Positions 1 through 64,000 of a stretch of 64,000 nt of DNA are shown piece by piece. How positions within the stretch are numbered: the first letter of the stretch is position 1; each line of letters begins with the position of its first letter. The DNA comes from Amblyornis subalaris (taxonomy: Eukaryota > Chordata > Aves > Passeriformes > Ptilonorhynchidae): positions 2,232,001 through 2,296,000 of the forward strand of contig JACAXG010000124.1 in NCBI GenBank assembly GCA_018881555.1. The letters are read 5' to 3'. The notes beneath the pieces are model-generated. The model was given only the letters and a program-made list of their open reading frames with translations, did no database searches and was not told the DNA's origin. The position numbers and the translations under genes are program-made.

Positions 1-1495
1 CAACAATTTCTTCATCTTTTACCTTTTTTTCTTGCTTTGTTGCTGTAATGAGTTGAGTGGAAGTTGCATTCTCATATTCAACTGGAAGGACACCTGAACA
101 TAAAGGCTGACAAGGAGCGTTACCATCACCAAGCATTTCTGCACCTTCAGCTTTTTTACATGAGTTCATATGCAAGGATGAGCCTTCACATTTTGGATGA
201 CTCTGAATAGAAGCAGGCTCTGCACTCTCTGAAGATACCGGCTTCCCTAGATTTAGAAATGTTTGGTCAGGAGATTTCATCTTTTCCTTTCCCATTTTTT
301 CTGTTTTGTTCCCAGAAAAAAACATGGAAGAAGTCAGCAAATCAGAGGTATTTCTGACAATACCTCCAAATGAAAATACTGGTGAAGGCAATGGAAAGCT
401 ACTTTTGAAGGAAAATGCACAATTATTGGTGAGCAGGGGGAACTCGGAGGCACCATTCACCCCAGCTGCAGTGTTGGTTTCTGAAGTGCTGCAAGCTACA
501 GTTGTGCTGGATTCTGAGGTGTGAGGTTTTTCTTCCCCTAAGACAGATGGTTTCTGTGTACCAGATCCTGCAGTTTCCTTTACACAAAGTGTTTTTTCCC
601 TCATGTGAGATAACGTTTTTTTGTCAGAGGGCTTCTCAGATCTGCTAAAAAATGAGGATGATGGTAAAACCTTAAATGAATTGCCGACTCCAGATCCTGA
701 ACACCAATCTCTTTTTGAATTGCCAAAGGGAAACAAAATGTATCGTTTCTCACTTTCTGCTGAGTCCAAACTAGGACTGGTTGAAGCATCACAAACTGTG
801 TTTTTGGTTTCAGGACTATATTTATCCTGGTTATTGACTTTATTCACATTATCACATCTCCCTAGATAAAAGTGAGGGAAAGCACACTTCTTGTCTTGCT
901 TTTTAAAGGAAAATGTACCTCTATCTTTAAAAAATCTTGGTAACGAGTTGTTAGATGCACTGAAAGTAAAAGGTACACCTGAAGGTCTCTNTGCAGAAAC
1001 ATCTACAGGTTCTGAATGTGAAACAGTAACAGCCACTGTTGCTGCTGGCTTCAGGTCCGATGAAGCACTAGAATTTGAGTCCATTTCATTGGAAACAGTA
1101 ACTGCTGATGCCTGCAGTGGCAATTTCGCTTTAATTAACAACTCTGGCGACTTTTCTGACAAGGCTGGAGTGGATATTTCCTGGGAACTTCCCTCATGAA
1201 ATAATTTTAAGTCACCATTTGTTTCAGAAAAGACTGTATTTGTGGATGGGATGCTGTGAGCACTGCTTCCAGAAGGGTTTCTTTTGTCAAAGCCACCTGC
1301 TCTTTGCAGGGTTCTCACTTTTATTTTATCTGTGTTATTTGCTTTGGTAGGTGAAGATACAAAAGAAGTTCCTGAGGACTTATCCTTGGAGGCCTCAGCA
1401 GTTACAAATTTATACTTTTTATTTGCAGGGAAATTTTGTATCTTACACACATTGGTGAGCTTCTGAAGTTCCATGTAGTATTGGTAACGTAACTC
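1..1495 (-). CDS. TRIM-like gene, coding exon 8, Ser/Thr-rich FG-like tail (open at window edge)
   Basis: Acceptor TTTGTAG, then 498 codons with no stop to the left edge, which is far beyond chance for this AT-rich DNA. The product is rich in Ser, Thr, Lys, Pro and Glu, low in hydrophobics, and predicted disordered. Phe motifs include PFTF, GTFSF, LFPFG, CAFSF and PVFSFGG. No B30.2, TM segment or zinc finger is visible. One codon holds an N (position 991, codon NAG). Confidence 0.83.
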
Positions 1496-4400
1496 CTACA
1501 AAGACACCAAAAAAATCACATTATCTAAAATGGCATTTGTGGATTCAGAGGTTACAAAACTCACATATGCCTAAGACTGAAGGAAAGTTTTCATATATTC
1601 TGTAGTATTTATAATGTATTTTTCCATTCCTACTGGAAGGCAACAGAATATAAGTCATTACAGAAAAAATTGATTTAAAAACAATTGAACAAGATATACA
1701 CGGAACCCTGATGACAAAGTAGATTTTGAAAGAGGAGACTACAGAAAATTTTATTTAAAGTCACTATCAAAACCAGAAATAGATAAAAATACTAGCATAG
1801 ATAGTAAGTGACAAATTCTCAAACTGTCATGAAAAATAGCCATCTGAAATCAAGTTAGGTCGTGGGGTTTTTTTAATATATAATTGCAGTCTTAATTGCA
1901 ACAGAAAACAGGCATTTTCTAAAATAATACAGAAAAAAAATTTTCTACATTAAAAGGACCGAAGCAATTTATTCATTTGATCATCTGCCACTGGTATTCT
2001 CAGAACATGCATAATGTGATTCACTGCCAGCCATGCTTCACTAACTGTAACTAGAATCATTTTGTACAGAACAATACTCAGTCACTCACATGGAAGTGCT
2101 AGTAAGTAAAAAAAAAAAAAAAGTAAAAAATCTAGTTGTATAACTACATCATTCGAAATGAAACAAGAGATTGGATTCAGTTTTATGTCAAATTATTATG
2201 TGGTCTTACAAGATGGAACTCTATTATCTTTAGAAAACAGAGTACAGGCAGATGACTTCCTCTTCAAATAAGACACTAAGGAAGTTTATTTGGATTAGAA
2301 AGCTACAGATGTGACTCAAAAAGCCACGCTAAATATAAAAGTAAGTATTTGAAGTCAGTAATAAGATTAAGTTTCAGCTTTCTGAAGTAAAAAAAAAGTA
2401 GAATTCCAACAGCTTTAATACCTAGTCAGATTTCATTCTTGAATTGGAAGGGTAATTTTCTACTAAGAAAACTGAAAAACATTTAAAAAGCTTATTTAGA
2501 AAGTTGCATCATACTTACAACAGATGTTCAATCATACCTCATGACTCATATTCTGAAATGCTGACATTTCCGATATTGACATAAAGCGAGTAGGGATCCT
2601 GCTACCGTCTGCTTCATCCTGTCCTGCTACAGGCTGAAAAATGTTTTGCAGCAGATATTATATTTCATTTTGATAAGCCAAAACAGACAAAATAGTACAG
2701 TGTTGTAAACCACATAGTCAAAGACTTACAATAAATGTGTTGTGTATATTCTTCTGGTCCTGCCACTGCTTTATGAGATCTTTAAATGGAGTCAAGTTCT
2801 CATTTCCTTCATAAGGTAGATCTATCAGAACACAAGAACAGTGATGGAGAATATATCAGATATGGAAAACACTGAAAGGTTCCTGTGCACCTAAGCAGAT
2901 TCCATTTAAGAACAAAAGTACATTACCCTAAGTGAGACCCTAGTTCTTGCTGAAGTTTCTGTGATATAAAGCAAAAAGCCCGTGAAATACATTTTTAAAA
3001 ATGCCTGGAGATGCCTGCTCCAACAGAAAACCTAACACATTCTCCTGTGAGGTAAAGGTGTTTGATGTAAGCACAGCCAACATTCATGTGACACCACAAG
3101 AAATGTCCATCTAGTTCAGCAACACTTCTGACAGTGGCAATACTGGCTGGATATGAAAAGTGCAATACTGCACCCAGATTCCAAAAATACAGCCTAGGAA
3201 CTTCCTAGGGAATGCACATTCATAAAACACACTTAAAAACCCTCAATGAATTTATCATTCATTTAATTTTCTCAGATGCTTTCTTGCATGTGTTTGCCAT
3301 GCAGATTGTTTATTAGCAGTTGGTTCCACAAGTTGCAAGTTTCTAGAGTGACTTCCCAAATCTTGTCTTAATTAAGTCCTTCTTCCATACCTTTAACAAT
3401 GCCTGCATTAACAGGTGTTAACTCCAACGCTAAGATTTCATTAACCACAGATTTGATATCTATCTTCTTTGGCATATACACTGGTGGTTTTTCCCAGCTG
3501 GATGCTATATTCATCACATCAAGCTGAGTTTTCATTCTGAAAAAGGAAAAAAAACAAACCATGAACCAACTTGAACATTTTTCTTCATGTTTACCTGTTA
3601 ACTAAATTACATCTGCCTAATACTAAAAAAAAAAAATTAAAAAGAAATCACAAGGAGGGAGAAGAAATCAGAAAAACTATGTCTTCAATAAAATGTCACG
3701 TTCCCTAGATTTTTTTTCTTAAAACTTGTTCACTCAAATTAGGTTTCATACACAATGAAAACTGCAAGAAGTTGTGCTGGTAGGTCACCAAAAAATTACC
3801 CCTCTCCACTTCTCTCCGTGCATGTTGCCTGAATTGAAATCATACTTCTTCTTCAGAGAGCATTGCTAATGTTAGTCTAAAACACAACATATTTTGAAGA
3901 ACTTCATTTCCAATATTCTTTCTTAAATGCAGGTTAAAAAGTTCTAAGAAACGTAATTAATAACACTAAGAAGAAATTACAGGCTATGTGCACTACAAAC
4001 ACAAGAACAAAGATTCTGCAAAATCTCCACACACACTCTTCCACTGAAAGTTTTCTGTAAAAGCTTCAAGCATGCTTCAGTGTTCCTGAGCTTAAATAAG
4101 GTATCTGAAAGTATCCAATCACCATGTATTAATGAATTTCTATATTCGCTTTTTATCAGGGAAACAATTCAAAAAGCTTGATTATCTCTAATCCCAGATA
4201 GTACATCACTAAAATTCTTGACGTATTTTCTAAAATTTGGAGTATGGAGCATCCAAAAGTCTGAAAGTATTATAATGTCTTAATTCCTCCATACTATTTT
4301 CATTTAAAATTGCTTATCTGACGATATCCAAAGTAAGTTTTTTTTAATTTTTAATCTTAAAAATCTAAAAGAACTCTAGAGAACTAACAAAATATGAAAA

Positions 4401-7400
4401 AAATACATATACCTTGTATTCAAGCCACAGGCAACCTATAAACAAAACAAGAATTTTTAAGATATAAGCTTTTATCTTGTAATATTTTGTGTTAAAGACA
4501 AAAAGAAGAGCCAAATGAAGGCATTCAAATCATGGCCCGTATGGTTACCTAATCCATTTCAGATGTTCAGATATTTGTAAACATACAAAGTAGCTTTTCA
4601 TTTGTATTTCTCGGAGAGGAAAGCCTCTATGTGCTCTAAATATGCTATTACACTATTTAAAAAGCTGTCTTTTAGTCTTAAATCAGGCAGATAACGTGGT
4701 AAGAAGTGCACTGCACTGTAGTCAAGTGACACTTCCCAAAAAATGTAACGAAAAATGAAAAACCTGACTGGATTATAGCTGCTTCCCTATAAAAACCTGG
4801 TGATCTCCCTATACCAGATCTTTAAACAACAAAAACAACATACTGTGACAGACGGCAGGCAGGGAGGTGCTAAGTTAAAGAGGAAGAGAACAAATAGCAG
4901 GAAGAGGAAGTAGGAAAAAGATGAAGAGGGTAAGAAGGAACCAAAGGCGAAAGGGGTGGAAGAACAGAAGGCATAGGAGAAACAGAAGGAACAGGTAGAA
5001 TATGGAGCAAACCAGGAGATACAGGAGGAAGAAGATGAAAACAGGATAGGGAATGAGAAACAACAGGAAGAAACAGAGGAAGTTGAGAAAGAGATATGTG
5101 GAAGTGAATAGTGACATACTAATCACTGGAGGCACAATATTTCTTCCAGAAGTGCAAGNTGCTTTTACTTCAAGTGAAAGTTAAATTTTCCTTAACCAGT
5201 TGTTACCAGACACTCAGTCAAACTCTATGTACTTTCTTAGCTTCCTATTTATCTGAAGGCAGAAAAAAGGCCCACTGCAGAAATCAGCAGTATGCTGTTT
5301 CTTAGGAAAGCATACAACAAAATCACTGATAAGCTGCAAATAAAGCTTCTTCAAACTTTTCTAAAAATGAAAAACATTGTTATAAAAAAAGGACGAAGTG
5401 TTAACTAATTTTAGTCTGTATTTCTAATTTGTTGACTTTGTTTTTCCTGATCAATCATAATCATAATCTACAATACAGCAGGCTCTACTTGAGTTCATTT
5501 TTCAACTGATATCAAAAACAAAAGGCCATCACCTCCAGGAAACGCTGAGGATCACACTCATGGACAAGCTTTTCACAATCCTTCAAAAAATTCTCAATGG
5601 TCTTCTTGTGAGTTTCTTTCATTTTCTTCCAAATCTGAAATTCTTTCTCTTTTTTACCTCTTTGATTTTCAACATCTTCTAGTAATTGCTGTTTTTTCAT
5701 TTCTAGAGTTTTGAAAATTTCTCCAAATTTCAGCTCAATTATCTCCGTATCATTTTTCAGCATCATCTAAAAGCACGAGAACATAAGAACAGACGCAAAT
5801 ACAATAGCAATGTCCACACAGAGTCACTTCTCTAAGTAAACTCAGAGTGCAACTATGCCACAAGAAGTACCTTGCAAGCTCCAGGCTGTGTTTAAACTAT
5901 CATGAGAAGAGAAATAAAGCCACACACACATAATATCTGTAACTCACATCTGTATCATTCAGTCGTTTTGAGATCTCATTCACCAGCTTCTCATTCATTA
6001 TTCTCATTTGTTTCAGAGTGCTGAAGAAGGTTAACTGCAACAAAATTGAAGCACTTATTACAACTTTATCTATTCCATAAAATAAATACATTTCAGTGCT
6101 TATCTACAATCAGATCACGACAGACAAGTAGTTACTGGAGANCGTCCAGTGGAGGGCCTCAAGGATGATTTGAGGTCTGGAGCATCTGCCTTATGTGGAG
6201 AGACTGTGGGAGCTGGACCTGTTTAGTCTGGAGAAGATTGAAAGGGGATCTCATTAACACACATAAATATCTCAAAAGTGGGTGCCAAAAGGAGGGTGCC
6301 AGACTCTTTCCAGTGCTGCCCAGCAACACGATGAGGAACACAGGAAGTTTCATCTCAACATGAGGAAGAACTTCTTTACATTGAGGGTGGCAGAGCACTG
6401 AAACAGGCTGCCCAGGGACGTTGTGGAATCTCCCTGTCTGGAGACATTCAAACCCCACCTGGACACATTCCTGTGTCACCTGCTCCAAGTGACCCTGCCT
6501 TGGCAGGGGGATTGGACTGGATGATCTCTCAGAGGTTCCTTCCAATCCTCTCAATTCTGTAATATTCTGTACAGTATAGTAAAAAAGCTTGTGATTCAAA
6601 ACATCACTTAACATTTAATGCTTTCCTGGATCAGTACACAAACTTTCTTCTGCTGTTTCTCAAAGTAATGTTCTTAAGCTCATCTACAATGCATACTGAT
6701 AGAATGACTACTTTATGGTTAAAACATTGTTTTCCTCAGGCTTTTTTTAACCTCTCGCCTCACATACATCTATCACAACTTAAGTTTTAATGCTGTTATT
6801 TCAGTTTGACTAAAAACTGTGTGATATTCACTCTTTTTTCAATGCCTCATATTGCTAAAATAGAAAGCCGTTCATAATCAAGATATCTCTGTTTGGTTTT
6901 AAACCAATATTATCACAGAGTTTTCGTCCTGTATTTCTCTAGTGTCGCTACTTAACATTACGTAGTATGTCTAGTGCAAAGGCTGTTTTCTCCTGGTTTC
7001 CCAAGTGCATGCAACTGGTGATGGGAGAGGCAGGAGGAAAATCAGTGTAAAAGCAACTTTTGTCTTAAAGAATAATCAGTGCTGTATTTAACTTTTCTAC
7101 TTGTACTTTTTATCACTGCCCTGCAGTTGTTTCCATTACTGCACAACAGTACACCAGGAACTGCCACCCTGCAACCAACGTGCACACGGCATGAAAAGCT
7201 TATTCTACCCAAATAGTAACTATTTTGTTAAAAATCACGACTTCTACAACCAGCCAACCGACCACTATGGCAGGCACTTGCCTTCTTATGCAAACTGGAA
7301 GGCATCTTAGTTTTACATTTATTATTACTCACCCAAACTATCTATCCCTAAATATGTAATTATCTATGACCCAAATTACCTATGGCAGCTCAGAGAACTT

Positions 7401-8392
7401 ATAAACAAAACATCTGTGGGTGGGTTTTTGGTGTTGTTTGTAGATCTCCCTGAACTTGGAAAAACAACAATAAAAAAACCAAACATCCCCCTCCTCCCTC
7501 CCCCCGCATCAAACCAAAAAAACCCCTCGACACCACCCCAAAATCAACTCTCCAGGTCCTTCGGTAAACTAGGTTCAGATCTGTTGCTACTGTAATACCG
7601 CCTGCTCCCCTGTGTGTGGTGAAAGCAGTCTGACGGCAGCAGGGGAAGGCACACCCCGGCAGTCCACAAACAACTCCTGACTCTGCCCCAGAGCAGTACA
7701 AGCCTTCTGCCTCTCTCTTGCGCACCACGCCTCAGTTTTTCCTGTCTTTCTGCGTAAAAGCAACCCGCGCCCGGNGGGATCTCCAGTGGACAGCCCGACC
7801 TCCCAGCCGCGCCCCTGGCGCGGAGGGGGAGCGCCGCGCTTACTTTTTCTTCCTGGTACACCGTGTCTATGAGGTTGACAGAGTGGAAGATGCCCTGATG
7901 CTCCTCGGAGACGCACTGCCCGCACCCCGCCTGCCGGCACATGCGGCAGTAAAGCTGCACCGGCCGGCTCGGGTGTTTCTGGCAGCTTCCCCCTAGCGCC
8001 TGCGGGGAGAGCAGGTCGGGCCCCGGCCTCGGCCCCGGCGCCGCCTCCCCGGCCGTGGCGGCGCCCGCCGCGCCGGAGCGGTAGAGCTTGACCACCTCTG
8101 CCAGGGTGGTGTTGACAGGCAGGGCGGCGACGCCGCCGCGGGGCAGCAGGCACAGCTTCCTGCACAGCGGGCACGGCACCCGGGCGCAGGGCGAGCCCGG
8201 GCCCGGCCCCGGCGCCCCCCGGCCGAGACGGGCCTGCCCCGGGCCCCGCTGCAGCTGGCGCAGGCGGGCGGCCTCGGCCGAGGCCAGGCACTCCAGCACG
8301 CAGCCCCGACAGAAGTTGTGCGAACACAGCGGCAGCGTCACCGGCTCTTCCAACAGCGAGAGGCACACGGCGCACGTCAGGCTCGCCTCCAT
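1..8392 (-). CDS. TRIM-family RING/B-box/coiled-coil E3 ligase with a long nucleoporin-like tail (partial, 8 exons, 3' end off window)
   Basis: Joined exons on the minus strand are 8392-7844, 6034-5948, 5766-5533, 4435-4413, 3536-3391, 2821-2730, 2633-2538 and 1495 to the left edge. All junctions have AG acceptors and GT donors, and the phases agree. The frame gives 907 residues with no stop. The RING C3HC4 is C7, C10, C23, H25, C28, C31, C74, C77. The B-box is C137, H140, C149, C152, C157, C160, H165, H170. Charged, Glu/Lys-rich coiled coil spans about 184-300. A linker (about 300-410) precedes a Ser/Thr-rich tail (410-907 and beyond) with FTF, FSF and FSFG motifs. TRIM proteins of this layout are RING-type ubiquitin ligases that dimerise through the coiled coil. 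The start was chosen for its strong Kozak context (GCCGCCGATGG) and for placing the RING at residue 7, as in other TRIMs. No B30.2 domain is seen up to the window edge. I do not recognise a named orthologue; family membership is secure, function is inferred. Confidence 0.85.
2538..2633 (-). CDS. TRIM-like gene, coding exon 7
   Basis: 96 nt, phase 0, between TTTTCAG and GTATGA. Ends with residues FQNMSHE, which continue into ELRYQYYMEL at the start of exon 8. The joined SHEELRYQYY resembles the short S-x-E-E-L-R-x-x-D-Y motif of NUP98-type nucleoporins; this is a visual resemblance only. Confidence 0.78.
2730..2821 (-). CDS. TRIM-like gene, coding exon 6
   Basis: 92 nt between TGATAG and GTAAGT; the first two bases complete an Asp codon. 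Encodes an acidic-to-polar linker (DLPYEGNENLTPFKDLIKQW and onward). No domain recognised. Confidence 0.78.
2900..3290 (+). repeat. Probable ancient degraded interspersed repeat in TRIM intron 5
   Basis: The stretch around 3108-3170 (tctagttcagcaacacttct, then gacagtggcaatactggctgg) resembles an old, widespread amniote repeat that reads roughly 'tctagtccagtatcctgt...gacagtggccag'. The family is not named with certainty and the ends are guesses. Confidence 0.3.
3391..3536 (-). CDS. TRIM-like gene, coding exon 5
   Basis: 146 nt between TTTTTCAG and GTATGG. Encodes a conserved-looking linker containing SSWEKPPVYMPKKIDIKSVV and a following hydrophobic helix. No domain is recognised. It occupies the place where classical TRIM genes have the linker between coiled coil and B30.2. 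Confidence 0.8.
4413..4435 (-). CDS. TRIM-like gene, coding exon 4 (23-nt micro-exon)
   Basis: A 23-nt exon flanked by TATAG and GTATAT. It encodes VACGLNT plus two bases that complete an Arg codon with the next exon. It is too short to find as an ORF and was found from phase and position: a 23-nt exon directly after the coiled-coil exon is characteristic of many TRIM genes, and including it keeps the frame into exon 5. Confidence 0.78.
4873..5106. repeat. Purine-rich (GA) tract in TRIM intron 3
   Basis: About 230 bp in which the plus strand is overwhelmingly A and G (aggaagaggaagtaggaaaa-type sequence), so the transcribed minus strand is a long polypyrimidine run. It is an irregular low-complexity tract rather than a simple repeat. 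It lies about 440 bp upstream of the 23-nt exon. Confidence 0.7.
5533..5766 (-). CDS. TRIM-like gene, coding exon 3 (main coiled coil)
   Basis: 234 nt, phase 0 at both ends, acceptor CTTTTAG and donor GTGATG. Encodes 78 residues dominated by Lys, Glu and Gln (LEMKKQQLLEDVENQRGKKE), a clear coiled coil. Its size matches the roughly 231-nt coiled-coil exon of classical TRIM genes. Reading through the donor reaches a stop after a few codons, so retention of the intron would give a truncated protein of RING, B-box and coiled coil. Confidence 0.87.
5948..6034 (-). CDS. TRIM-like gene, coding exon 2 (start of coiled coil)
   Basis: 87 nt, phase 0 at both ends, acceptor TTGCAG and donor GTGAGT. Encodes 29 residues with a heptad-like pattern (STLKQMRIMNEKLVNEI). 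TRIM genes of the B30.2 class commonly have an exon of about 96 nt at this place. Confidence 0.85.
6139..6572 (+). mobile_element. CR1 LINE, 3' end fragment
   Basis: Shows the CR1 3' terminal sequence: gtccagtggagggcctcaag, a diagnostic 'ggctgcccagggacgttgtggaat' style segment near 6410, 'ggattggactggatgatctc' near 6510, and the degenerate end repeat (aattctgtaatattctgta). Sense on the plus strand, antisense in intron 1 of the TRIM-like gene. An apparent minus-strand ORF of about 150 codons across it is a shadow of the repeat. Confidence 0.88.
7844..8392 (-). CDS. TRIM-like gene, coding exon 1 (RING and B-box)
   Basis: 183 codons ending in TAC CAG GAA GAA AAA before the donor GTAAGC. It carries the complete RING and B-box. 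The RING loop between C31 and C74 is a 42-residue Gly/Pro/Arg-rich stretch, longer than usual. Very GC-rich, unlike all later exons, because it lies inside the CpG island. Confidence 0.88.

Positions 8393-8714: not shown

Positions 8715-8774
<60 letters not shown>
8715..8774. repeat. (GCGCCC)10 hexanucleotide microsatellite in promoter
   Basis: Ten uninterrupted copies of GCGCCC (GGGCGC on the minus strand), followed by GCGCGC. Each unit contains a GGGCG core resembling an Sp1-family site, and the G-rich strand could form non-B DNA. It lies about 325-385 bp upstream of the chosen ATG. Confidence 0.92.
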
Positions 8775-8778
<4 letters not shown>

Positions 8779-60296: not shown

Positions 60297-63270
60297 TGTA
60301 TATGTGACAAAGCAGGAGTGGAAATTTAATCCTATTGGTCCAACAGGACCTTGAACAAAACACTATATAAAAATAAAAATCTTCTTTAAATCTCTGACTT
60401 CCAGTGGGATACGGGCTTCTAAAGTTTTTAGCACATTTTGAAATCCTTCCCTTAGGTGTTTTGCTTCTTTTTTAAGCTAAGGAGATCATGCAAAACTAAA
60501 GTTAGTGGTTATACTGATGTTTTTGCTTTTGCTGGTTTTCATAGTTAGTGTTGGCATCTTCCTTTATTTTCAAAATTTGTCTTCACTGCAGATTCTCTTT
60601 CGGGACAAATTACTGTATTTGATAGCTGGTCATGGCAGAAATGTTAAATTGCTTTTTTCAAAGTAAATGTTCAAAAGTGCATTTGGAAATATTTCTGTGT
60701 GCAAGCACTGAGTTTGCAGTGTAGCACACCTCCTCACAAGGGTGACATTTCAGGTGTGCTGCCACAAGCCAGCCTCTTCATGTAGAACATGAACCGTTTG
60801 CACTCCAGTTCCACAGAGCTGCTTTTCTATTCTTATGCTTCATATTCTCATTTCTCTCACGTCATATCTTTAATATACTAGGTTTTCTGTTTGTGAAGCC
60901 TGTTACTTTTGACCTGGGATAGGTGTTACAGCTGAGAAACATTTTCAAAAAGTGGGCACAAGGATTTAATTAAAACTTGGGTTGGGCCTGTGTACATTTT
61001 AATTTGATTTTCATTTTTTGGTCTTTTTGACTTGATTTGAAAAGGGACACAAACATTAGGAACACGTATCTTGTATGAAAGAGCCATAAGTATCTGTACA
61101 GAGGAATTTCATGCCTAGGTTTTTCATGCGTTTTTTTTAACTAGTACTGCATCCACAAAACTTGGATGAATACAGGTCATCAACCTGTTTGCTGCTTGTC
61201 CAAATCAAAGCCTCAGCTGAAGATTTTGCCAGGTGTTCAAGAATCATAAAAGTGAGTTATTGTGCCTCTTTCCTCCTTTGTTAACACACACTTAAAAAAA
61301 TGAAGAAATGTATTACATCAGTATTTTGAGTTTTCTACTCTTTGAGTTTGCAGCTTTTCTGAAATTTCATCCTTTCCGACTTTGAAATGCAGCATTGGCA
61401 TTTTTAGTGTCGCTTTTCGTTATATTTTTGAATAAGAAAAGACAATATATTGAACATCAAGCTATGGAAATATTTCTTTCCTGACAGCACAAAGAATTCA
61501 TTCATTGAAAGAATTATGGATACTTTTACCTATATTATTTTGAGTGTCTTATAAATCCTTAATGATACATGTGAAGAGCAAACAACATAAGGCTGGTCCA
61601 CATACCATCTGGGTATTTTTTAGAACTAAATCACTGCAGTAAGTTAAAAAAGTAGATACAAAAATCTGGGAGAAGTGATCCAAAGTTAGTGGATTAATCT
61701 TTATTTTTGACCCAAAAATGTTTTGATGTGCCTGTTTAAATAGGGAAGCTCTTTCTAGTTTCTTAGTGTATCTTCAGTATTTAGCAGGTCAGCCTAGTCC
61801 TGAGTGATTATGCAGTGTTGGATGAGGAACATTCAATGATTGTTGTCTCTTATTCCTTTGCTGGTTTCAGCTGTAGTAATGTCTGTCACATCAAGCTGCA
61901 AGATATATTTCTATATGGGTTCTACTGAAAGGCAGACAAATTACATATATTTGTAGATTACGACACTGTTTTGTGTCTTCTCTCAAAACATCACCTGCCT
62001 GTATTTTAGTGTCAGTGTGGAACACAAAGAAAGCTGATAATATTTAACTAAATTTTACCATAATCAACAAATGGAGATTTGTCAGTACCACTGCCTTTGT
62101 GTCTGATACACCTGATGATTTTGCATTCCATTCTCACATTTTCTCCTAAATCTTCTGGAGTTGTACTTTGTTTTCTTATCAACTTGGTAACTGCAGGTTT
62201 AATTCTACAGGTTCTTGTGTGAGCACACCGGGTCTGCAAGCCCTGGTCTTGCTGAGGCGTGGAATGGTATCTGTGTTTGGCAGACAACAAGCCTGGGTTC
62301 ATTGTGCAGCTATTGAACGAAGGTATATCTATTTCTCTCGAGGGACACAGTTTTCTAGTTTCTCTGTTTCTCTGCTCTCATAAGAATCTCAGGCTATGTT
62401 GGGCTGCACAACAGCACATAATGAGTTTTGACTGCATTGTTTGAAGAGTAAGTTTCTTTTTCTGGTTTCAGTTGTGCCAGGTGATGGCAGTAAAGGACCT
62501 TTGCTCTTTCAGAATATGCTATGAAGTACAGAAAGCATTCAGACTCCTAGGCCACCTCCAAGCGAAAGGACTCACTTATTTCATTCCAGTTCCTGCTTTG
62601 AAGCTCGTTATGATATCCATCATGAGATGAAAAAAACAGCATGGCTTGGATTGTAGGCTGTTTGGGTTGTTTTCTCCTTCTTCATATATAATAAATGCAG
62701 TATCTGTCTTTCACTTTCCTTTCTCTGTATTGGCCTTCTCATACTGTATATTCTAGTATAAGCTTTCAATGTATTCCATACAGTGTAAGCTGTAGTGTTT
62801 GGTTTTGGTCTGAAGATATTTAAAACTGCCCTTAGAACTTTAGCATAGATTGCGTGTTAAGGGACAGAGAGTGTCCCAATCAAGCTGTTTATCTCGGATT
62901 TGTCACTCAAGCAGATGGTAACATAGCGATGTCATGTCAAAAACGTTTTCAAAATGAAAAGCCTTGCAGTGAGCCTGGAGTGTACCTGCTGGAAATGGAA
63001 CAAGTCAGCCATTCACAAGTAATGTTTTATTGATGGTCTAAAGGAAAGAAGGTGGAAAAAGAAGGCCAGACCCAAAAATACAAATTAATGCAGCTTGGCC
63101 TTGAAACTTCCTTTCTTAGGCTTATATTTAATGAGCATAGGGTGAGATAGAGAAGTGGCTAGCTTACCACTTCTCAAACAAGCCACAGCAATGTCTGTTA
63201 ATAGGGCATGTGCTTCACCTGTGGTTTTGATTAGTGCTGTCATGCCATGGATGGGGGAGTGAGCTAAATG
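60297..63270. other. Intergenic region
   Basis: AT-rich, with no recognisable gene or repeat on either strand. Confidence 0.5.
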
Positions 63271-63366
63271 TTTTTCTTGTGGCAAAACTCATCGCAAACT
63301 GGGTGTAGCTTAAGACCGTTTTTCTTGTGGCAAAACTCATCGCAAACTGGGTGTAGCTTAAGACCG
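63271..63366. repeat. Perfect 48-bp tandem duplication
   Basis: Two identical 48-bp copies (63271-63318 and 63319-63366), each starting tttttcttgtggcaaaactc and ending gtgtagcttaagaccg. No further copies flank it. Confidence 0.95.
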
Positions 63367-64000
63367 TCAGTGCTGTAATGAGAACACTCTCATGTTTTAA
63401 TTCAGATAGAGAATGAAGCTTTGTAGCAAGTGTCCTGGTTGTGTCCTCTTACTGAGCTTTGGATTGCATTGCAGGGCAGTCTCCCAGAGTGTGGACTGGA
63501 TTGATTTTGGACAAAGCTTAATTGGAAAATATGTTGTAGGACTTCATCTAAATGCACTCTGGCCACAACAGAGTTGGGCTACTTTCGTTCATCTTTTTCT
63601 TCTGCAAAGATGCTTCACAAAGTTGGTGTGTGTCCACCAGATGCTGGACCAGTCCATTAAGATCTCTCCTTTTTCATATTCAAATGATGTTATTATCTAT
63701 GCTTCTAGTAGAAGGTTGTATGGGAAGCTGCTAGCTTCCTGTGCTTGTGTTTGGTTGTGTTAGATCTCATTCAGCTTGTACTATTTCAGTTTTTCAGGCT
63801 GCCTTTTTTTTATTTTTCCCCAGCATATTCCTGCTTTCCTTTGTATCCTTGTCAACTTTGTGCCACTAGTCAACCTCTTTAGTACATATCTACTCCTCAA
63901 GCCAAGGCCATGAGTGGTAATATTAAATAAGACTGTTCCCTAAACCAACTGACTAGGAACTTCAGTAGCAACATTTTTCTAGACTGAAAATTTGCATTTT
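63367..64000. other. Intergenic region to window edge
   Basis: No recognisable gene. A plus-strand ORF of 116 codons (63413-63763) has no family motif and a composition typical of chance. Confidence 0.45.

What the first reader, a model, noticed from the sequence alone, without database searches (positions are those of the whole stretch)
1..8392. TRIM-type E3 ligase gene whose B30.2 exon appears to be replaced by a nucleoporin-like tail
Seen: an intact RING, B-box and coiled coil, with exons of 87, 234 and 23 nt after the RING/B-box exon, followed by a tail of at least 498 residues in one exon, rich in Ser/Thr and with F[ST]F, FPFG and FSFGG motifs. Known: classical B30.2-type TRIM genes share exons near 96, 231 and 23 nt. 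Inference: this gene descends from that class but acquired, or evolved, a disordered FG-like tail. A TRIM ligase with pore-like targeting could act at nuclear pores, possibly against nuclear-entering pathogens.
Basis: partly seen in the sequence, partly recalled or inferred. Interest (0 to 1): 0.75.

Follow-up and report, generated by a model that had tools for sequence, protein, structure and literature searches.

The report
TRIM ligase with nuclear-pore binding motif
An unnamed gene of birds, reptiles, amphibians and the coelacanth joins a TRIM ubiquitin-ligase head to the short motif with which the nuclear-pore protein Nup98 grips its partner Rae1, so the ligase is probably aimed at a transport factor that several viruses also attack.

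Summary
The gene model is real. Eight minus-strand exons (7844-8392 down to the left edge) with standard splice sites encode RING, B-box 2, a TRIM coiled coil and a long disordered tail. Relatives occur in birds, turtles, crocodilians, squamates, amphibians and coelacanth; none of 33 scanned lists a B30.2 domain. A 17-row profile finds Nup98 GLEBS in the PDB at E=3.8e-11, and two frog proteins pass Pfam's cutoff. The Nup98 glutamates that salt-bridge Rae1 are kept in 142 of 149 models with a GLEBS match. In birds the tail is not an FG-repeat domain (FG at chance), but FxFG exceeds chance in the window and is commoner in coelacanth and caecilians, so an FG-like tail has probably eroded. Exon 7, the GLEBS core, is an in-frame cassette missing from 14 models. 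Likely mechanism: a dimeric ligase gripping Rae1 in competition with Nup98. Rae1 binding, ligase activity and any antiviral role are inferred. Ten paper searches, lists partly capped, showed no description.

The parts
7844..8392 (-). exon 1 (549 nt): start codon, RING and B-box 2
   Evidence: model; Pfam
8162..8374 (-). RING finger, residues 7-77
   Evidence: Pfam; Cys/His columns invariant in 24 orthologues
7877..7987 (-). B-box 2, residues 136-172
   Evidence: Pfam E=6.7e-8
5948..6034 (-). exon 2 (87 nt), coiled coil
   Evidence: helix in models of orthologues
5533..5766 (-). exon 3 (234 nt), coiled coil
   Evidence: TRIM chains matched by the model of frog orthologue P0159
4413..4435 (-). 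exon 4 (23 nt)
3391..3536 (-). exon 5 (146 nt), end of coiled coil and linker
2730..2821 (-). exon 6 (92 nt); its end begins the GLEBS motif
2538..2633 (-). exon 7 (96 nt, phase 0-0): GLEBS core up to the first glutamate of the EE pair; in-frame cassette missing from 14 orthologue models
1460..1495 (-). start of exon 8: second glutamate and closing helix of GLEBS (ELRYQYYMELQK)
   Evidence: helix in models of orthologues
2..1495 (-). exon 8 (at least 1494 nt): Ser/Thr-rich tail, predicted disordered, continues left of the window
   Evidence: pLDDT under 50 from residue 425 on in orthologue P0001
722..733 (-). FxFG motif FPFG
365..376 (-). FxFG motif FSFG

Best explanation
The gene encodes a TRIM-type E3 ubiquitin ligase whose substrate-recognition part is a Nup98-type GLEBS motif followed by a disordered, formerly FxFG-richer tail. 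Inferred mechanism: the coiled coil pairs two chains, each GLEBS hairpin clamps the top of a Rae1 propeller through the two conserved glutamates, and the RING ubiquitinates Rae1, its bound RNA-protein cargo, or proteins that seize Rae1. Because it should use the same Rae1 face, the TRIM must compete with Nup98 for Rae1. Alternative use of exon 7 would switch Rae1 binding on or off while leaving the ligase intact. Shown by sequence: the architecture, GLEBS homology, the conserved EE pair, and the cassette exon in gene models. Inferred: Rae1 as partner (about 0.8), ligase activity (about 0.85), control of a Rae1-dependent step such as mRNA export, spindle function or defence (about 0.5).
For: The unselected Pfam scan of the window protein lists Nup98_GLEBS (E=0.022, below cutoff). 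Profile A2 (22 rows, window included, no amphibians) against 177,635 PDB sequences: 8 of 9 hits up to E=10 are Nup98 chains (one is titled 'Peptidase S59 domain-containing protein'), best E=5.9e-4. Profile A3 (17 rows, window included, with amphibians and coelacanth): best E=3.8e-11, Nup98 chains are the first 8 of 14 hits, the next is SKP2 at 0.4. 0 of 300 column shuffles reach the real score (at most 6.7 vs 44.1 bits). With the unselected full-length profile A1, Nup98 GLEBS constructs appear at E 0.014-0.022 among RING/TRIM chains (60 of 80 rows shown). Pfam's gathering score of 27 is passed by P0155 (29.7) and P0164 (27.2), 2 of 9 scanned; 5 more match below it and 2 not at all at E up to 0.1. 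15 of 35 amphibian-like rows carry PF21240 as precomputed (threshold of that annotation not stated). The motif's EE falls, by count along the alignments, on Nup98 E201/E202, the Rae1 salt-bridge residues (PMC3783196, passages), and is kept in 142 of 149 models with a GLEBS match. The motif is more conserved (0.62) than its flanks (0.49, 0.39) over 64 proteins. TRIM fold: the model of frog orthologue P0159 matches TRIM72 best (2.7e-4).
Against: No binding or activity was measured. In sauropsids the Pfam match stays below cutoff: 6 of 24 proteins match at E up to 1, and of 10 GLEBS pieces 4 match (E 0.0006-0.008) and 6 do not. The window's motif alone finds nothing in the PDB by phmmer up to E=10. 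GLEBS motifs also bind Bub3 in other proteins, so Rae1 is not proven. Seven of 149 models with a GLEBS match lack an adjacent EE pair. Models without exon 7 could be annotation artefacts in part.
Confidence: 0.68

Rival explanations
1. The GLEBS binds Bub3 rather than Rae1, making the protein a mitotic-checkpoint ligase.
For: Bub1 and BubR1 GLEBS motifs bind Bub3, and in yeast complexes two glutamates make the salt bridges (PMC3061984, passages).
Against: Profiles from this gene hit Nup98 chains and no chain titled Bub1, BubR1 or Mad3 up to E=10. Mouse Bub3 is reported to lack affinity for the Nup98 GLEBS (PMC3061984).
Confidence: 0.1
2. The protein is a competitor rather than a ligase for Rae1: its GLEBS strips Rae1 from Nup98 and so dampens mRNA export, the RING serving self-turnover.
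For: Overexpressed Nup98 GLEBS causes nuclear poly(A) RNA accumulation (PMC12666860, passages; PMC3783196, passages). By homology the motif uses the same Rae1 face.
Against: The RING and B-box Cys/His columns are invariant in 24 orthologues, which suggests a needed catalytic head; this does not exclude self-turnover.
Confidence: 0.2
3. One reading: the disordered FG-like tail itself brings the ligase to the nuclear pore.
For: FxFG motifs exceed chance in the window (2 vs 0.09) and more so in coelacanth (FxFG 4 vs 0.08; FG 7 vs 1.74, p=0.001) and in both caecilians (3 vs about 0.1) (uncorrected p-values).
Against: FG dipeptides are at chance in all 17 bird rows counted, window included; FG and FxFG are 0 in 5 of 5 turtles, and FxFG is 0 in 8 of 9 squamates and 8 of 9 frogs counted, although the gene is kept.
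Confidence: 0.2
4. The GLEBS resemblance is convergent or chance, and the tail recognises other substrates.
For: Pfam scores are below cutoff in the sauropsids scanned, and the window motif alone finds nothing in the PDB.
Against: E=3.8e-11 for the tetrapod-coelacanth profile, 0 of 300 column shuffles near it, and two frogs over the Pfam cutoff.
Confidence: 0.03

Closest known systems
Nup98 GLEBS motif (residues 157-213, Rae1-binding; PDB 3MMY)
   Same: Aligned over nearly the whole motif, with the EELR core; the two salt-bridge glutamates are kept (PMC3783196, passages).
   Different: It sits behind a RING-B-box-coiled coil instead of inside the FG-repeat region; no other Nup98 domain is listed for the 33 proteins scanned with Pfam.
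TRIM family, class C-V (RBCC with unclassified C-terminus) and class C-IV (B30.2)
   Same: RING, B-box 2 and coiled coil; small exons of 87, 234 and 23 nt.
   Different: No B30.2/SPRY found; a GLEBS and an FxFG-bearing tail, not among the C-terminal domains named in the figure legend read in PMC10445537 (passages).
Duck/chicken TRIM215 (PMC10445537: abstract, outline and passages)
   Same: A bird TRIM without mammalian homologue, said to be distantly related to TRIM59 and TRIM13; several orthologues here are named TRIM59-like.
   Different: Filed there under C-XI. Whether it is this gene could not be checked (supplement not readable here). The main text has no occurrence of 'nucleoporin'; I did not search it for GLEBS.
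PHR ligases RPM-1/Highwire/MYCBP2 that bind RAE-1 (PMC4806438, passages)
   Same: Ubiquitin ligases that recruit RAE-1 through a small conserved motif.
   Different: A different ligase family with its own domain set; whether their motif is related to GLEBS was not tested.
TRIM34 (PMC13189347, passages)
   Same: A TRIM that co-precipitates with RAE1 and contacts transport factors, in an antiviral setting.
   Different: [quoted passage not shown] 'GLEBS' occurs in that text once, in a reference title.

Membership tests
TRIM (tripartite motif) | RING | tested here: met
   Two RING families above their cutoffs in the window protein (PF13445, PF00097); Cys/His columns invariant in 24 orthologues
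TRIM (tripartite motif) | B-box 2 | tested here: met
   Pfam 6.7e-8, above cutoff
TRIM (tripartite motif) | TRIM-type coiled coil | tested here: met
   TRIM_CC E=0.09 in the window (weak), 8 of 24 orthologues at E up to 1 (best 0.00042), 7.8e-5 in P0164, below the curated cutoff of 30 bits where bits were shown; Foldseek TRIM72 2.7e-4 and TRIM28/KAP1 6.7e-4 for the model of P0159
TRIM (tripartite motif) | ubiquitin ligase activity | not testable with these tools
   needs an assay
TRIM class C-IV | B30.2/PRY-SPRY domain | tested here: not met
   No SPRY/PRY family listed for 24 full-length orthologues (25 of 31 families shown) or 9 further proteins. The window's own gene runs off the left edge.
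   87/234/23 measured; no reference genes compared
GLEBS motif proteins | sequence homology to Nup98 GLEBS | tested here: met
   the window protein alone is below Pfam's cutoff
GLEBS motif proteins | glutamate pair that salt-bridges Rae1/Gle2 | tested here: met
   142 of 149 models with a GLEBS match; window SHEELRY
GLEBS motif proteins | binding to Rae1 or Bub3 | not testable with these tools
   no assay; no complex prediction with Rae1 was made
FG nucleoporin | many FG repeats, above chance | tested here: not met
   Window 2 FG vs 1.57 expected (p=0.47). Of 47 tails counted, 4 have FG p under 0.05: coelacanth P0177, caecilian P0168, salamanders P0179 and P0180

The most novel reading that the evidence does not exclude
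A standing TRIM trap for Rae1 hijackers: the ligase carries its own GLEBS so that TRIM-Rae1 offers viral proteins the same Rae1 pocket as Rae1-Nup98 (the pocket entered by VSV M, sarbecovirus ORF6 and herpesvirus ORF10), draws them off the pore and ubiquitinates them, with exon 7 as an on/off switch. It would be an integrated decoy in a vertebrate ligase, kept since the coelacanth-tetrapod ancestor; no mammal showed up in my capped lists.
Probability: 0.15. Interest if true: 0.92.

Novelty: new variant of a known kind. Interest (0 to 1): 0.74.

Why it matters
It is a fusion of two well-studied modules, a TRIM ligase head and the Rae1 grip of Nup98, conserved from coelacanth to songbirds under names such as 'uncharacterized' or 'serine-rich adhesin for platelets'. 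It predicts one binding partner and two critical residues, so a single pull-down can test it. If right, it adds a class of TRIM proteins whose recognition part is a nucleoporin motif, ties ubiquitin directly to a transport factor attacked by several unrelated viruses (PMC12666860, passages), and raises the question of whether and why mammals lack it.

Tried and rejected
B30.2 or another known domain further left: rejected from orthologues (the model shows no confident fold after residue 425). FG-repeat domain as such in birds: rejected. Single-sequence phmmer of the GLEBS region against the PDB found nothing up to E=10; the profiles do. A second copy in the window: tblastn at E up to 1e-3 found only this gene's exons. 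The first AlphaFold model was poor (mean pLDDT 36.9) and was not used for fold search; the second, of P0159 (62.0), matched TRIM chains for B-box and coiled coil by Foldseek, but in VIA-align those were tied in Z with unrelated helical chains. No Nup98 or Rae1 chain is in the rows shown of those two lists, which proves nothing. Papers: a search with Glu201/Glu202 returned 0; six LOC names returned 0. Rfam had no match in the window. Six of the 11 other long ORFs were scanned and had no credible Pfam match. Mammals and ray-finned fish: none among the rows shown, but lists were cut (120 of 171, 120 of 139; 36 of 36, with a length filter), so absence is not shown. Against the decoy reading: one structural paper found no interaction between the ORF6 tails and the GLEBS itself (PMC9376891, passages).
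Full report
What is there. The minus strand from 8392 to the left edge holds eight exons (549, 87, 234, 23, 146, 92, 96 and at least 1494 nt), with AG acceptors, GT donors and one open frame of 907 codons. Pfam finds RING and B-box. The window looks like a passerine bird: the closest named rows are songbird proteins at 84% identity (one unnamed row 85%), and a two-residue gap inside the motif is shared with passerines. The species was not identified.

Orthologues. A search of 5.8 billion proteins gave 171 hits, 120 shown; the named ones are birds, turtles, crocodilians and squamates. A turtle query cut to 406 residues gave 36, all shown, and added a frog (P0134) and a coelacanth (P0133). A frog query gave 139 hits, 120 shown; 35 are amphibian-like (two of unnamed source) and include caecilians and salamanders, and the coelacanth protein P0177 (1071 aa) is there too. 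The longest sauropsid model is 1185 aa; the frogs run from about 400 to 770 aa. Source names are 'uncharacterized', 'serine-rich adhesin for platelets-like', 'TRIM59-like', 'TRIM75', even 'alcohol dehydrogenase 1-like'. No mammal or ray-finned fish was among the rows shown; two lists were cut, so this is a lead only.

The GLEBS. Pfam's Nup98_GLEBS appeared below cutoff in the window protein (E=0.022, residues 388-414) and in 6 of 24 full-length sauropsid orthologues at E up to 1. Of 10 pieces cut around it, 4 matched (E 0.0006-0.008), 1 had another weak family only, and 5 had none. The window's piece alone found nothing in the PDB. A profile of 22 rows, window included, found Nup98 chains at best E=5.9e-4; the only other hit of nine is EVM001 at 0.35. 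Adding amphibians and coelacanth (17 rows) gave E=3.8e-11, with 0 of 300 column shuffles near the real score (44.1 vs at most 6.7 bits). P0155 and P0164 pass Pfam's own gathering score, 2 of 9 scanned. Without choosing any region, the full-length profile still lists Nup98 GLEBS constructs (E 0.014-0.022), the only family below E=0.2 there that I do not take for a RING or TRIM protein (60 of 80 rows shown).

Why it should bind Rae1. [quoted passage not shown] changing the yeast pair is reported to impair Gle2 association (PMC3783196, passages). By count along the alignments these fall on the EE of SHEELRY. A model of the 17 rows matches 149 of 186 proteins at 25 bits or more (185 fetched plus the window; 17 of them trained the model) and 142 of the 149 have the adjacent pair. 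Of the other seven, five end, diverge or are cut inside the motif and two carry an insertion. The 37 without such a match are models lacking exon 7, fragments, rows covering only the start of the protein, and one lizard just under the threshold (P0184, 23.8 bits).

Exon 7. It has 96 nt and phase-0 borders, and encodes the GLEBS core up to the first glutamate. Fourteen models lack this piece: P0031, P0042, P0043, P0056, P0086, P0106, P0109, P0174, P0175, P0176, P0178, P0179, P0180 and P0185 (contexts; scores; a few other short rows were not inspected). Twelve of them carry an isoform label. Alligator has both forms (P0106 without, P0123 with). The same border in frogs, salamanders, a caecilian, birds and reptiles suggests an old splicing switch, but gene models are not reads.

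The tail. It is predicted disordered. FG pairs are at chance in all 17 bird rows counted, window included, but FxFG motifs are above it (p under 0.05) in 15 of these 17; the coelacanth has FxFG 4 vs 0.08 with FG 7 vs 1.74, both caecilians FxFG 3 vs about 0.1, while the 5 turtles and the quail have none (p-values uncorrected, orthologues not independent). A once richer FxFG tail that decayed is the simplest reading. Birds, turtles, crocodilians and squamates in the sample printed share an acidic Ser-rich end (SDSD..LSQ..S..SSASEYFSVAED-like), missing from two songbird models.

Expression. Contigs of 2,678 and 3,375 bases from an unnamed source encode 643 and 811 residues across the exon borders, so spliced transcripts, or intronless copies, exist in relatives.

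Mechanism. The sequence supports a dimeric TRIM ligase that holds Rae1. GLEBS occupies the Rae1 face that Nup98 uses, so the two should compete, and overexpressed GLEBS is reported to block mRNA export (PMC12666860 and PMC3783196, passages). Ligases that recruit RAE-1 by a small motif are known in another family, the PHR proteins (PMC4806438, passages), and human TRIM34 co-precipitates with RAE1 (PMC13189347, passages). Several viral proteins bind Rae1-Nup98, mainly in a pocket of Rae1 (PMC12666860), which makes the decoy reading attractive but unproven.

Novelty. Ten paper searches (most lists capped) listed no paper whose title or abstract start describes a TRIM with a GLEBS. I saw passages of seven papers, and for one of them (PMC10445537) also abstract and outline. 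TRIM215 of duck may be this gene, which I could not check. The architecture is a new variant within the TRIM family.

Noticed in passing
window 8715-8778: Perfect GCGCCC hexamer array, 10.7 copies, about 320 bases upstream of the start codon in a GC-rich region.
   Followed up: no
window about 6160-6600, minus strand: A stretch in intron 1 that looks by eye like an avian CR1 retroelement (recalled, not searched).
   Followed up: no
window 63270-63367: A 48-base unit present twice in tandem at 100% match.
   Followed up: no
C-termini of P0018, P0049, P0066, P0090, P0106, P0110: Conserved acidic Ser-rich stretch with a SASEYFSVAED-like core at or near the end, missing from songbird models P0001 and P0005.
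   Followed up: partly
window about 991, exon 8: Single N inside the coding exon gives an X in the protein; the window holds 14 N in all.
   Followed up: no
P0121, P0129, P0130, P0133: Models that stop or diverge right after exon 7, in a turtle, two snakes and the coelacanth, giving short forms without the tail.
   Followed up: partly
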